NCBI GenBank assembly: GCA_027533425.1
Contig: JAPZUD010000005.1
Span: 310,001 to 374,000, forward strand
Origin: Beijerinckiaceae bacterium
GTDB taxonomy: Bacteria > Pseudomonadota > Alphaproteobacteria > Rhizobiales > Beijerinckiaceae
Reading direction: 5' to 3'
DNA length: 64,000 nt
Shown here: positions 47,065 through 51,669 of the stretch, piece after piece
Layout of the letters: the number at the start of each line of letters is the position of its first letter
Numbering within the stretch: the stretch's first letter is position 1
The notes under the pieces: generated by a model
Told to the model about the DNA's origin: nothing
Database searches by the model: none
Seen by the model: only the letters and a program-made list of their open reading frames with translations
Program-made: the position numbers and the translations under genes

Positions 47065-48498
47065 ATGGGCGCCATCGCCTTTCCGACGCCGCAGGCGGAT
47101 ATCCTTGCCCGCCGCGAGAGCATCCTCGCCGGCCTTGCCGCGCTTTTGCCTCCCGAATGCCTGATCACCAGCGAGGACGAGCGCCGCGCCTACGAGACGG
47201 ATGCCTTCACCGCCTATCGCCGCGTGCCGATGGCCGTGGCCCTGCCGCGCAATACGGCGGAGGTTTCGGCCGTGCTCGCCTATTGCCATGCCGAGAGCGT
47301 TCCGGTGGTTCCACGCGGCGCGGGCACCAGCCTTGCCGGCGGGGCGATCCCGCAGGAAGATGCGGTGGTGATCGGCGTCTCGAAGATGAACCGCATCCTC
47401 GAGATCGATTATGCGAACCGCTTCGCCCGCGTCGAGGCTGGCGTGACCAACCTCGCCATCACCAACACGGTCTCGGCCGAGGGCTTCTTCTACGCGCCGG
47501 ACCCGTCGAGCCAGCTCGCCTGCACGATCGGCGGGAATATCGGCATGAATTCCGGCGGCGCGCATTGCCTGAAATACGGGGTGACCACCAATAACATCCT
47601 CGGCGTGACGCTGGTGCTGGTCGATGGCACCGTGGTCGAGATCGGCGGCGCGGCGATGGATGCGCCGGGCTATGACCTGCTCGGCCTCGTTTGCGGCTCG
47701 GAAGGCCAGCTCGGGATCATCACCGAGGCGACGGTGCGCATCCTGCGCGCTGCGGAGGGGGCGCGGCCGGTGCTGTTCGGCTTCCCGACCAGCGAGCAGG
47801 CCGGGGAGGCCGTGGCGGCGATCATCGCGGCAGGGATCGTGCCGGTGGCGATGGAATTCATGGACAAGCCGGCCATCGAGATCTGCGAGGCTTTCGCCAA
47901 GGCCGGCTATCCGATGGATGTCGAGGCGCTGCTGATCATCGAGGTCGAGGGTTCGGACCCGGAAATGGATGCCACGCTGGCGCGCATCGTCGCGATCGCC
48001 CGCGAGCATGGCGTGAAGACGGTGCGCGAGTCGAAATCGGCTATGGAGACGGCCGCGATCTGGAAGGGGCGCAAGAGCGCGTTCGGCGCGACCGGACGGA
48101 TCGCCGACTATATCTGCATGGACGGCACGATCCCGACGGGGCAATTGCCCTATGTGCTGCGCCGGATCGACGAGATCGTGAAGCATTACGGGCTGCGCGT
48201 CGCCAATGTTTTCCATGCCGGCGATGGCAACCTGCACCCGCTGATCCTCTACAATGTCAATGATCCGGGCGAGGCCGAGAAGGCCGAGGAAGCCGGCAAC
48301 GACATCCTGAAGCTCTGCGTCGAGGTGGGCGGCTGCCTTACCGGCGAGCATGGCGTCGGCATCGAGAAGCGCGACCTCATGCATCACCAGTTCAACCGGG
48401 TCGATCTCCAGCAGCAGCTGCGCGTCCGCGCGGCCTTCGATGCGCAATGGATCCTGAACCCGGCCAAGGTGTTCCCGCTTGACGGGAGGGCGGCATGA
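47065..48498 (+). CDS. glcD: Glycolate oxidase subunit GlcD
   Basis: FAD-containing catalytic subunit that oxidises glycolate to glyoxylate. The 477-residue protein has a PCMH-type FAD domain (VVPRGAGTSLAGGAIP, TIGGNIGMNSGGAHCLKYG) and the C-terminal FAD-oxidase domain (NVFHAGDGNLHPLI, LTGEHGVGIEKRD). GGGGAGAG precedes the ATG. Its stop overlaps the glcE start by 4 bases. Confidence 0.95.
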   Translation: MGAIAFPTPQADILARRESILAGLAALLPPECLITSEDERRAYETDAFTAYRRVPMAVALPRNTAEVSAVLAYCHAESVPVVPRGAGTSLAGGAIPQEDAVVIGVSKMNRILEIDYANRFARVEAGVTNLAITNTVSAEGFFYAPDPSSQLACTIGGNIGMNSGGAHCLKYGVTTNNILGVTLVLVDGTVVEIGGAAMDAPGYDLLGLVCGSEGQLGIITEATVRILRAAEGARPVLFGFPTSEQAGEAVAAIIAAGIVPVAMEFMDKPAIEICEAFAKAGYPMDVEALLIIEVEGSDPEMDATLARIVAIAREHGVKTVRESKSAMETAAIWKGRKSAFGATGRIADYICMDGTIPTGQLPYVLRRIDEIVKHYGLRVANVFHAGDGNLHPLILYNVNDPGEAEKAEEAGNDILKLCVEVGGCLTGEHGVGIEKRDLMHHQFNRVDLQQQLRVRAAFDAQWILNPAKVFPLDGRAA

Positions 48499-49682
48499 TC
48501 GTGGTGCGGCGGCCGCAGGACGAGGAAGAACTGGCGAGCCTCGTGCGCGAGGCCAGCGGCCATGGCGCGCCGCTCGCCATCGAGGGAGGCGGCACGCGCA
48601 AGGGGCTGGGCCGGCCGGTCAATGCCGGGATCACCGTCTCGGTGGGCGGGCTCACTGGGATCACGCTTTACGAACCGGCGGAGATGGTGATCGGCGCGCG
48701 GGCGGGCACGCCGCTGGCGCTGATCGAGGCGGCCCTGGCGGAGAAGGGCCAGATGCTCGGGTTCGAGCCGCCGGATTTCCGCCGCCTCTACGGCACGGAA
48801 GGCGCGCCGACGATCGGTACCGTGGCGGCGGGGAATCTCTCCGGCTCGCGCCGCCTCTGGGGCGGGGCCTGCCGCGACAGCCTGATCGGCGTGCGCTTCG
48901 TCAACGGGCTCGGCGAGATCGTCAAATCCGGCGGGCGGGTGATGAAGAATGTCACCGGGCTCGACCTGGTGAAACTGCAATCCGGCGCCTGGGGCACGCT
49001 CGGGGTGCTGACCGAGGTCATCTTCAAGGTTGTGCCACGACCGGAGGTGACGCAGACGCTCCTGCTCGAGGGCCTGTCGGAGGCCCGCGCCATCGAGGCG
49101 ATGAGCGCCGCGGTCGGCTCGCCCTTCGAGATTACCGGCGCGGCGCATCTGCCCGCGCAGGCCGGCGCGCCCGCACAGACGCTGCTCCGGATCGAGGGCT
49201 TTGCCTTCTCGGTCGAGTACCGGGCAGAGGCTTTGGCGGGGTTGCTGAAGCCCTTTGGCGCGCTTGGCCGGCTGGACGGCCCCACGGCGGCTGCCCTCTG
49301 GCGCGATGTGTCCGACGGTGCGCTCCTTGCCGAACCGCGCGACCGGGCGCTCTGGCGGCTCTCGGTCAAACCGGGCGAAGCGGCCGCAGCGGTCGCGGCC
49401 ATCCGGACCACCCGCGAAGCCTCCGCCTTCTATGACTGGGCGGGCGGCCTTGTCTGGCTGGCCACGCCGGAAACAGGCGATGCCGGGGCGGCGGTGATCC
49501 GCCGGGCGGCACGGCAGGCCAGCGGCTATGCCACCCTTCTCCGGGCTTCGGACGGGCTGCGCGCCGAGGTGCCGGTTTTCGAGCCCGAACCGGCCCCCAT
49601 CGCCGCGCTGAACCGCCGGATCAAGACCAGTTTCGACCCCGAAGGGCTGCTCAATCCGGGGAAGATGCATAGTGGAGTTTGA
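48495..49682 (+). CDS. glcE: Glycolate oxidase subunit GlcE
   Basis: Second FAD-binding subunit of glycolate oxidase. The 395-residue protein has IEGGGTRKGLGRP, GTVAAGNLSGSRRLWGG and KSGGRVMKNVTGLDL in the PCMH domain, and ends NPGKMHSGV. It is translationally coupled to glcD. Its last codons contain a GGAG ribosome site 7 bases upstream of the inserted receiver gene's ATG. Confidence 0.95.
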   Translation: MIVVRRPQDEEELASLVREASGHGAPLAIEGGGTRKGLGRPVNAGITVSVGGLTGITLYEPAEMVIGARAGTPLALIEAALAEKGQMLGFEPPDFRRLYGTEGAPTIGTVAAGNLSGSRRLWGGACRDSLIGVRFVNGLGEIVKSGGRVMKNVTGLDLVKLQSGAWGTLGVLTEVIFKVVPRPEVTQTLLLEGLSEARAIEAMSAAVGSPFEITGAAHLPAQAGAPAQTLLRIEGFAFSVEYRAEALAGLLKPFGALGRLDGPTAAALWRDVSDGALLAEPRDRALWRLSVKPGEAAAAVAAIRTTREASAFYDWAGGLVWLATPETGDAGAAVIRRAARQASGYATLLRASDGLRAEVPVFEPEPAPIAALNRRIKTSFDPEGLLNPGKMHSGV

Positions 49683-49683
49683 A

Positions 49684-50334
49684 ATGAGCCTGATCTCAAA
49701 CCCTCAGTTTTGGCAGGCTATCGCTTGGCCTCTCGTTGCAATCTTCGCATTTTTGCTTCTCTTGAAGCCGCTCAAGGCACTTCTAGAGCGCGAAAATCTG
49801 TCCATAGTGGTGGGAAACACAAAAATTGATGTGAAGTCTACAACGGTCCGATTTGGAGAAGACATATCGCAACTTCAAAAAGAAATTGCAGAATTAAAGA
49901 GTATTGTTGAAGAACTGAATCCTAATTTAGGCGAAAATTCAGAAATATCTGGTGATTTGAACGAAATATCTACGCGCAAGCGCGTTTTGTGGGTTGATGA
50001 CAATCCAGGCAATAACGTATTCTTGATTGAGTCGGTCAATAGAGATGGTTGGGATGTTGATACAGCAATTTCAACATCAGATGCGCTGAAAAAAATTTCT
50101 CAATTGAACTATAACGCGATAATTTCTGATTCTACTCGATATGAAGATGGAATTGAAAATCGATTTGCTGGCCTTGAGTTTTTGAAGGCATTGCAGAAAA
50201 ATAAAAATGAAATTCCAATATTGATTTTTACAGGACGTGAAGGAGCAAGATTAACCAGTCACTTTATAAATGCAGGAGCCTCTAAGATTACTAGTTCCGG
50301 ATCTGAGATTTTTTCATTCCTTCGATCAATCTAA
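49684..50334 (+). CDS. Membrane-anchored receiver-domain protein inserted in glcDEF
   Basis: A 216-residue protein: one N-terminal membrane helix (about 12-28), a short strand-rich part, a coiled coil (about 60-80), an Asn/Glu linker, and a CheY-like receiver domain (about 100-216). The receiver keeps acidic D105-D106 (VLWVDDNP), phospho-acceptor D149 (AIISDS), T183 (LIFTGREG) and K201 (GASKIT), so it should be phosphorylatable. No output domain follows. The gene is strikingly AT-rich with codons (ATA, TTA, AGA) rare in neighbours. A GTG at 49672 is an alternative start. No kinase gene is adjacent. Function unknown. Confidence 0.85.
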   Translation: MSLISNPQFWQAIAWPLVAIFAFLLLLKPLKALLERENLSIVVGNTKIDVKSTTVRFGEDISQLQKEIAELKSIVEELNPNLGENSEISGDLNEISTRKRVLWVDDNPGNNVFLIESVNRDGWDVDTAISTSDALKKISQLNYNAIISDSTRYEDGIENRFAGLEFLKALQKNKNEIPILIFTGREGARLTSHFINAGASKITSSGSEIFSFLRSI

Positions 50335-50352
50335 AAGCAGAAAAGACACAGG

Positions 50353-51669
50353 ATGCAGACGAATTTCTCGCTCGCGGCTTTGGCCGATCCGGCGATGCAG
50401 GCCTCGGAGAAGATCCTCCGGACCTGCGTCCATTGCGGTTTCTGCACCGCCACCTGCCCGACCTATCTCGAGCTCGGCGACGAGCTCGACAGCCCGCGCG
50501 GGCGCATCTACCTGATCAAGAAGATGTTCGAGCAGGGCGAGCCGGCCACGCCGGAAGTGGTGCAGCATATCGACCGCTGCCTGTCCTGCCTGTCCTGCAT
50601 GACCACCTGCCCGTCCGGCGTGCATTACATGCATCTCGTTGACCATGCCCGCGCGCATATCGAGGACACGTATCGCCGGCCGTGGCACCAGCGCTTCCTG
50701 CGCGAGGTCCTGGCCCGTGTGCTGCCCTATCCGAACCGCTTCCGCTTCGCCCTGGCCGCGGCCTGGCTCGGCAAGCCGTTCCGGCCGCTGGTGGCGAAGG
50801 TGCCGAAGATCGGCGGGCCGCTGGCAGCGATGCTGACGCTGGCCCCCTCCCGCCCGGCCGGACGCTCGGCCATGGAAGGCCCGGCCAGCTTCCCGCCGAC
50901 CGCGCCGAAGCGGGGCCGGGTGGCGTTGCTGTCCGGCTGTGCACAGCCGGTCCTGGCGCCGGAGATCAACGAGGCGACGATCCGCGTCCTTACCCGGCTG
51001 GGCATCGAGGTGATCCTGCCGAAGGGCGAAGGCTGCTGCGGCGCGCTGGTCCACCATATGGGCCGCGAAGCCGAGAGCCATGCCCAGGCGGCGCGGCTGA
51101 TCGATGCCTGGATTGCCGAGATCGAGGGCGAGGGGCTCGACGCGATCCTGATCACCGCCTCGGGTTGCGGCACGACGATCAAGGATTATGGCTTCATGTT
51201 CCGCAATGACCCCGCCTATGCCGGGAAGGCGGCGCGGGTCTCGGCCCTGGCCAAGGACATCACCGAGTATCTCGCCGGGCTCGATCTGGCGCCGGTCCAG
51301 CCTACGGGCCTGACCATCGCCTATCATTCCGCCTGTTCGATGCAGCATGGCCAGAAGATCACCGAGGCTCCGAAAACGGTCCTCAAGGCGCTGGGCTTCA
51401 TCGTGAAGGATGTGCCGGAAGGGCATATCTGCTGCGGCTCGGCCGGCACCTACAACATGCTCCAGCCGGAGATTTCCGGCCGATTGCGGGCCCGGAAGAC
51501 GCGCAATATCGCCAAGCTGAAGCCGCAGGCCGTGGCGACCGGCAATCTCGGCTGCATCAGCCAGATCGGCCTCGGCTTTGCCGAACGGAACGAGGCGGTG
51601 CCGGTGGTGCACACGATCGAGCTGGTGGACTGGGCGCTCGGCGGCGACAAGCCGGCCAAGCTGGGCTGA
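50353..51669 (+). CDS. glcF: Glycolate oxidase iron-sulfur subunit GlcF
   Basis: Electron-transfer subunit of glycolate oxidase. The 438-residue protein has two ferredoxin clusters (C25, C28, C31, C35 and C76, C79, C82, C86) and two CCG domains (GCCGALVHHMG, ICCGSAGTYNML). It links GlcDE to the membrane quinone pool. Its upstream bases lack a clear Shine-Dalgarno site because an AT-rich gene separates it from glcE, which may lower its translation. Confidence 0.95.
   Translation: MQTNFSLAALADPAMQASEKILRTCVHCGFCTATCPTYLELGDELDSPRGRIYLIKKMFEQGEPATPEVVQHIDRCLSCLSCMTTCPSGVHYMHLVDHARAHIEDTYRRPWHQRFLREVLARVLPYPNRFRFALAAAWLGKPFRPLVAKVPKIGGPLAAMLTLAPSRPAGRSAMEGPASFPPTAPKRGRVALLSGCAQPVLAPEINEATIRVLTRLGIEVILPKGEGCCGALVHHMGREAESHAQAARLIDAWIAEIEGEGLDAILITASGCGTTIKDYGFMFRNDPAYAGKAARVSALAKDITEYLAGLDLAPVQPTGLTIAYHSACSMQHGQKITEAPKTVLKALGFIVKDVPEGHICCGSAGTYNMLQPEISGRLRARKTRNIAKLKPQAVATGNLGCISQIGLGFAERNEAVPVVHTIELVDWALGGDKPAKLG

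What the first reader, a model, noticed from the sequence alone, without database searches (positions are those of the whole stretch)
49684..50334. AT-rich membrane-anchored receiver gene inserted exactly between glcE and glcF
glcDEF is a tight GC-rich operon, yet a compositionally foreign gene sits between its second and third genes. It encodes one membrane helix, a coiled coil and a stand-alone receiver domain with all phosphorylation residues (D105/D106, D149, T183, K201) and no output domain. I know of no such subunit in glycolate oxidase. It could be a signalling input into the complex, a hitch-hiking regulatory module, or part of a conflict system using the WVDDNP-type receiver.
Basis: partly seen in the sequence, partly recalled or inferred. 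Interest (0 to 1): 0.72.

Follow-up and report, generated by a model that had tools for sequence, protein, structure and literature searches.

The report
Foreign membrane receiver in glycolate operon
A foreign, AT-rich gene for a membrane-tethered signalling protein appears to have replaced another membrane-protein gene between two glycolate oxidase genes; some of its relatives elsewhere are fused to bacterial immune and cell-death domains, so it is probably a captured stress or defence part rather than a standard oxidase subunit.

Summary
The gene is real: ATG 49684 to stop 50334, one base after the glcE stop and 18 bases before glcF, GC 0.386 against a mean of 0.658 for 48 other window ORFs. 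It encodes a TM-length helix, a beta-hairpin, a second long helix and a well-folded receiver. One claim is wrong: K201 is not the receiver lysine. That column is S205, with Lys in 0 of 27 family rows. The gene belongs to a sparse "WVDDNPxNN" family, mostly in unrelated contexts, but sometimes fused to TIR or CHAT-TIR, near VMAP-C/caspase or patatin genes, near toxin-antitoxin genes, or on viral contigs. In five same-genus genomes this slot holds DUF2585; no DUF2585 was found in this genome, so the receiver appears to have replaced it. The slot is insertion-prone (26 of 112 junctions >=400 bp, 0 of 84 at glcD-glcE) and 16 of 19 assigned same-strand occupants are membrane proteins. A distant cousin sits in the same slot in another family (G046). 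Best reading: a captured, probably histidine-kinase-independent membrane receiver from the conflict/stress repertoire, expressed from glc. A dedicated partner of glycolate oxidase remains possible.

The parts
49684..50334 (+). Gene for a 216-aa membrane-anchored receiver protein
   Evidence: ORF; Pfam Response_reg E 1.2e-9; GC 0.386
49702..49788 (+). Residues 7-35: helix of membrane length (most hydrophobic 19-mer is residues 9-27)
   Evidence: AlphaFold2 model; mean hydropathy 2.15
49831..49917 (+). Residues 50-78: long helix, coiled coil inferred
   Evidence: model
49978..50328 (+). Residues 99-215: receiver fold, acidic pair D105/D106, acceptor D149
50296..50298 (+). S205, at the column of the conserved receiver lysine
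49674..49677 (+). GGAG, possible ribosome site for the receiver, inside the last glcE codons
   Evidence: sequence; inference
49671..50352 (+). Inferred foreign replacement tract: from the last three glcE codons (AGT GGA GTT) to the base before glcF
   Evidence: the four closest relatives have GCC GG. and Leu/Ile there; DUF2585, or in G002 its 3' remnant, occupies the tract in them
47065..48498 (+). glcD
48495..49682 (+). glcE
50353..51669 (+). glcF
   Evidence: protein 95% identical to those of G002, G013 and G015

Best explanation
A single foreign gene has replaced the DUF2585 gene that sits between glcE and glcF in close relatives (shown by comparison; the direction is inferred). It encodes a receiver held at the membrane by one helix and a second long helix, probably a coiled coil. 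The receiver keeps the acidic pocket but lacks the conserved lysine, as do the family members aligned here, so it probably works without an ordinary histidine-kinase phosphorelay (inferred). The same receiver family is joined in some other bacteria to TIR, CHAT, caspase/VMAP-C and patatin proteins (shown), so the likeliest job is a membrane-tethered switch or adaptor of a stress or anti-invader response (inferred). Here it is carried as a solo gene, made from the glc transcript by translational coupling to glcE (inferred from the one-base spacing and the GGAG). Exact replacement may have used the conserved end of glcE and start of glcF as short recombination anchors, from a donor that also had it beside glcE (inferred).
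For: Composition. No receiver at the junction in 15 other same-genus genomes measured; a DUF2585 gene exactly there in G005, G007, G012, G013 and G015, and in G027 of another genus (Pfam run on G015 and G013 only). No DUF2585 found in G000, G002 or G001, with its 3' end left as a remnant in G002. Native flanks: GlcF 95% and GlcE 89-92% identical to G002, G013 and G015. glcE ends HSGV (AGT GGA GTT) against HAG[L/I] (GCC GG.) in the four nearest relatives. Family: TIR-REC in L146, CHAT-TIR-REC in L035, a REC-GAF protein about 1 kb from a VMAP-C+caspase gene in L153, patatin directly upstream in L145; HicAB, DUF433/DUF5615, BrnT or an integrase fragment near four others; terminase genes on two viral contigs. 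Lys lost. Receivers without histidine kinases in conflict systems are described in PMC8195603 and PMC7824862 (passages).
Against: I recognised no effector, NTPase or toxin-antitoxin gene beside this copy, and PADLOC gives no match. Of 34 family neighbourhoods looked at with crude gene calls, 18 showed no such link and 3 were unusable. D105, D106, D149 and T183 are kept, so phosphorylation is not excluded. The strongest other match in the order sample is in the same glc slot, which fits a glc-specific role as well. G046 keeps a DUF2585 gene elsewhere, so replacement is not the rule there.
Confidence: 0.5

Rival explanations
1. Dedicated membrane partner of glycolate oxidase: the slot between glcE and glcF holds membrane proteins that dock, anchor or tune the GlcDEF complex, and the receiver is one of several interchangeable occupants.
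For: Same-strand occupants include DUF2585 (9 genomes), DUF4870-like (4), this receiver (2) and a cation-efflux protein (1). The two strongest of the 7 family-positive genomes of the order sample have it there. DUF2585-GlcE/GlcF linkage is in print (PMC12419801, one passage).
Against: Most junctions have no room for an occupant: 70 of 112 are 50 bp or less. Occupants are unrelated in sequence and include DUF559 (2) and an unknown protein without a TM segment (1). GlcF is found in 280 of 387 genomes, while the receiver is at the junction in 2 of 112. Other family-positive genomes of the order, such as G227, have it away from glc.
Confidence: 0.2
2. Neutral passenger: a recent insertion in a permissive spot, expressed but without benefit, on its way to loss.
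For: Insertion-prone junction (26 of 112 with >=400 bp against 0 of 84 at glcD-glcE). Strongly foreign codons. The AGGAG found before glcF in the four closest relatives is gone.
Against: Intact ORF with family-conserved residues. A cousin with GC close to its host's sits in the same slot in G046.
Confidence: 0.2
3. Conventional two-component receiver fed by a histidine kinase, acting as phosphate sink or single-domain regulator at the membrane.
For: D105, D106, D149, T183 present; nearest solved folds are ordinary response regulators.
Against: Canonical Lys absent in all 27 aligned rows; no kinase gene recognised by eye among the ORFs of 44-56 kb.
Confidence: 0.07
4. Assembly chimera or contaminant.
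For: Abrupt composition change.
Against: Both borders lie at gene ends inside a 468-kb contig, and no DUF2585 was found in the genome. Reads were not available.
Confidence: 0.02

Closest known systems
Receiver domains without histidine kinases in conflict systems (VMAP/iSTAND2/TERNS3; passages of PMC8195603, PMC7159879)
   Same: Receiver fold, no kinase recognised beside it; family members fused to TIR and CHAT-TIR and near VMAP-C/caspase
   Different: Here a stand-alone membrane-tethered protein in a metabolic operon with no effector recognised beside it
cRec, cyclic-phosphate processing receiver (passages of PMC7824862, PMC9503650)
   Same: Divergent receiver, aspartates kept, outside two-component systems
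   Different: Pfam scan gave Response_reg and two sub-threshold hits only; neighbours are glcE and glcF, not NAD/ADPr enzymes
DUF2585 (lipocone superfamily) at glcE-glcF (passage of PMC12419801)
   Same: Same slot, also a membrane protein; the occupant apparently replaced here
   Different: No sequence relation seen; different Pfam family
Single-domain response regulators (CheY, Spo0F)
   Same: Receiver without output domain; acidic pocket
   Different: TM helix and long second helix added; conserved Lys lost

Membership tests
Response regulator receiver (PF00072) | Sequence match above curated cut-off | tested here: met
   38.8 bits against 30.2
Response regulator receiver (PF00072) | (beta-alpha)5 fold | tested here: met
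   10-residue mean pLDDT 90 or more from residue 101 on; Foldseek E 8.7e-8 to PorX
Response regulator receiver (PF00072) | Acidic pair and acceptor Asp | tested here: met
   D105 and D106 in 27 of 27 rows, D149 in 26 of 27
Response regulator receiver (PF00072) | Conserved Lys at end of strand 5 | tested here: not met
   S205; Lys in 0 of 27 rows, one a gap
Response regulator receiver (PF00072) | Phosphorylated by a histidine kinase | not testable with these tools
   needs biochemistry
Conflict-system receiver | Linked to or fused with effectors or NTPases | tested here: not met
   not met for the window copy, which lies between glcE and glcF; met for relatives L146, L035, L153, L145
cRec | Sequence match to cRec | tested here: inconclusive
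   Pfam scan at E up to 1 gave only Response_reg, DUF6036 and TolA_bind_tri; that Pfam holds a cRec model is recalled, and no direct profile comparison was made
cRec | NAD/ADPr or RNA-repair neighbours | tested here: not met
   neighbours are glcE and glcF
Glycolate oxidase accessory subunit | Conserved at the glc locus | tested here: not met
   2 of 112 measured junctions hold a receiver; family profile hits in 7 of 397 order genomes, 2 of them at glc
Glycolate oxidase accessory subunit | Physical or functional tie to GlcDEF | not testable with these tools
   needs pull-down or deletion

The most novel reading that the evidence does not exclude
The glcE-glcF junction is a membrane-partner slot of glycolate oxidase in this bacterial order, filled interchangeably by DUF2585, DUF4870, a metal transporter or a conflict-type receiver; in this genome the receiver ties glycolate oxidation at the membrane to a stress or immunity switch.
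Probability: 0.12. Interest if true: 0.75.

Novelty: new variant of a known kind. Interest (0 to 1): 0.45.

Why it matters
It documents a scattered family of stand-alone membrane receivers that shares its receiver module with TIR, CHAT and caspase-linked proteins and lacks the phosphorelay lysine. Six literature searches and the passages I opened showed no account of this layout, but none of those searches was worded for it and most subscription journals are not in the library. It also shows that a conserved metabolic operon has one junction that repeatedly accepts single genes, largely for membrane proteins, which makes a possible membrane partner of glycolate oxidase testable.

Tried and rejected
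Phage records gave no match; plasmid records gave 15 partial matches, none covering 80% of the query, and the Proteus and E. coli ones are chromosome-sized records. Conservation of the gene at glc in the genus was rejected. That the gene beside the receiver in L025 and L109 is an ADP-ribosyltransferase was a guess by eye; Pfam, NCBIfam and a PDB profile search gave no support, so it is not claimed; it was found in 2 of 15 genomes, not in G000 or G046. The sister grouping of window and G046 receivers is not firm: 93/91 in a 30-row tree, 76/87 in a 17-row tree; grouping the window with the Proteus copy is not rejected (p-AU 0.236), and with the Chlorobiales and Synechococcales copies only nearly (p-AU 0.0555). 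NCBIfam gave no match above a cut-off. The phylum sample of the Saccharothrix genome gave 3 of 246 genomes, that genome included.

Limits. In some searches only up to 7 first-look candidates per genome were scored, up to 12 and up to 4, so divergent members can be missed. Profiles A1 and A2 contain the window and G046 sequences, which lifts their scores. The 115 junctions are not a random sample: they are the nearest genomes by kinship or GlcF score, six of G046's family, and 40 that I picked by eye from the list for spread. Three without a recognisable glcE (L088, L101, L169) were dropped; 37 loci with too little glcF to align were measured from coordinates. The glcD-glcE control sees only loci that reach glcD. 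The Fisher p-values treat related genomes as independent. One genome per species is held, so no within-species comparison was possible. Of the 38 loci, three (L046, L052, L053) look like ordinary kinase or NtrC-type proteins.

Full report
What is there. The window has glcD 47065-48498, glcE 48495-49682 and glcF 50353-51669, all on the plus strand. Between glcE and glcF lies one ORF, 49684-50334 (216 aa), one base after the glcE stop; 18 bases separate its stop from the glcF ATG. It is the only stretch of the window where 400-base windows, stepped by 100, fall below 50% GC; its GC is 0.386, GC3 0.341 and CAI 0.288, against means of 0.658, 0.786 and 0.699 for 48 other ORFs chosen by a simple caller.

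Architecture. Pfam finds only Response_reg above its cut-off (residues 101-201, E 1.2e-9). The AlphaFold2 model, made from 27 family rows, has a helix 7-35 of membrane length, strands 40-43 and 46-49, a helix 50-78 and a complete receiver 99-215 (mean pLDDT 87, pTM 0.60). Foldseek places the receiver with ordinary response regulators (best E 8.7e-8). In the profile alignment to RcsC the canonical lysine pairs with a serine of the family; in the window protein this is S205, and the column holds Lys in 0 of 27 rows, one of them a gap. K201 is Lys only in the window row. The T183 column is Ala 7, Thr 6, Cys 5, Ser 5, Gly 3 and one gap.

Comparison with relatives. Of 61 related genomes searched with the protein, 15 including the window's own had a match at E 0.001; after the window's own the best is G046, in another family of the order (E 2.3e-23, residues 97-213), and the next is E 7.5e-7. 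Fifteen of the 16 other same-genus genomes could be measured: glcE-glcF is 3-26 bp in nine, 88 bp in G002 and 610-618 bp in G005, G007, G012, G013 and G015. The 610-bp insert is DUF2585 (Pfam E 8.7e-74 for G015, 1.6e-73 for G013; the others by likeness). Of seven genomes searched for DUF2585, G000, G002 and G001 have none, and G046 has one on another contig. The 88 bp of G002 end like the last codons of DUF2585. So the state near this genome appears to be DUF2585 in the slot, deleted in G002 and replaced by the receiver in G000 (direction inferred). The flanks are native: GlcF is 95% identical to G002, G013 and G015. The last three glcE codons differ: AGT GGA GTT against GCC GG. plus Leu or Ile in the four nearest relatives, after identical codons. 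This suggests the exchange starts inside the conserved end of glcE and that the donor also carried a glcE end there; it is an inference from 9 bases.

The slot. I measured 112 of 115 glcE-glcF junctions in the order, a chosen and not a random set (union recounted): 70 are 50 bp or less, 14 are 51-239 bp and 28 are 240 bp or more (26 at 400 or more). As a control, glcD-glcE has 4 of 84 at 240 or more and none at 400 or more. The 28 occupied junctions: DUF2585 in 9 genomes, DUF4870-like in 4 (2 of these above the Pfam cut-off), the receiver in 2, a cation-efflux protein in 1, DUF559 in 2, an unknown protein without a TM segment in 1 (L095), an apparent small gene on the other strand in 4 (L179, L184, L185, L188), 3 unassigned (L158, L173, L180) and 2 short ones without a clear gene (L078, L223). 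So 16 of 19 assigned same-strand occupants are membrane proteins, many of them in related genomes. Of the DUF2585 cases, G015, G013, L199 and L202 were tested by Pfam and the others recognised by likeness. The link of DUF2585 to GlcE and GlcF is already in print (PMC12419801; one passage read). The Fisher p-values (1.4e-7 and 1.4e-4) ignore kinship.

The cousin. G046 has a 241-aa protein of the same layout at the same junction; the interval has GC 0.63 against 0.72 for the locus. Of six other measured junctions in its family, five are short and one holds about 0.7 kb of other sequence, and 1 of 20 genomes of the family, G046 itself, has a family match. In 397 order genomes a profile that contains both sequences hit 7; G000 and G046 are strongest and both are at glc, the third, G227 (E 8.9e-32, model positions 9-216), and the others are elsewhere. 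In a class sample of 385, 4 genomes hit and only G000 covered the whole model. The two receivers come out as sisters with 93/91 and 76/87 support on long branches, 33% identity; this is not firm. Same slot, same rare family: either a glc-adapted lineage moving between glc operons, or an effect of the permissive slot.

The family. A scan of genome contigs gave 38 loci in many phyla, many with a TM segment, a linker and a WVDDNPxNN receiver; three look like ordinary kinase or NtrC-type proteins. Family-positive genomes were 7 of 397 (order), 4 of 385 (class), 3 of 246 (phylum of the Saccharothrix genome) and 22 of 398 (own phylum, broader profile, many weak). I looked at the surroundings of 34 distinct loci with crude gene calls. 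Four have effector links: TIR-REC (L146), CHAT-TIR-REC (L035), a large REC-GAF protein about 1 kb from a VMAP-C+caspase gene (L153, same place as L110) and a patatin gene directly upstream (L145). Four have toxin-antitoxin genes or an integrase fragment close by (L019, L020, L030, L041). Two share an uncharacterised neighbour gene, 42% identical (L109, L025). Two are on viral contigs with terminase genes. One is G046. Three gave no usable calls (L022, L164, L165) and 18 showed no such link. Passages read describe receivers outside two-component systems in conflict systems (PMC8195603, PMC7159879) and the cRec domain (PMC7824862, PMC9503650).

Judgement. Shown: a compositionally foreign single gene in the DUF2585 slot of glc; a receiver with a membrane-length helix that lacks the conserved Lys; a family with some immune and mobile-element links. 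Inferred: replacement by recombination at conserved gene ends; translational coupling to glcE; kinase-independent switching; a stress or conflict role. Not excluded: a membrane partner of glycolate oxidase.

Noticed in passing
glcE-glcF junction in 112 genomes of the order: The junction is a recurrent single-gene insertion slot, 16 of 19 assigned same-strand occupants being membrane proteins (DUF2585, DUF4870-like, cation efflux, receiver), unlike glcD-glcE.
   Followed up: partly
L109:1873-2484 and L025:4357-4980: An uncharacterised gene, 42% identical between a genome of the window's order and a Streptomyces MAG, sits beside the receiver gene in both; no Pfam or NCBIfam match and no significant PDB profile match.
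   Followed up: partly
L166:3896-4756 and L167:3671-4396: Membrane receiver genes on viral contigs that also carry terminase genes, possible phage cargo.
   Followed up: partly
L147:5131-6057, also L036 and L148: A protein with the same receiver behind an N-terminal Trans_reg_C DNA-binding domain (Pfam for L147), the reverse of the usual response-regulator order; L036 and L148 look alike by eye.
   Followed up: no
L020:5959-6459: The Proteus mirabilis copy ends early in the receiver, next to a HicAB toxin-antitoxin pair.
   Followed up: no
window 50335-50352: The AGGAG that precedes glcF in the four closest relatives is absent, so GlcF translation may depend on coupling to the receiver gene.
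   Followed up: no
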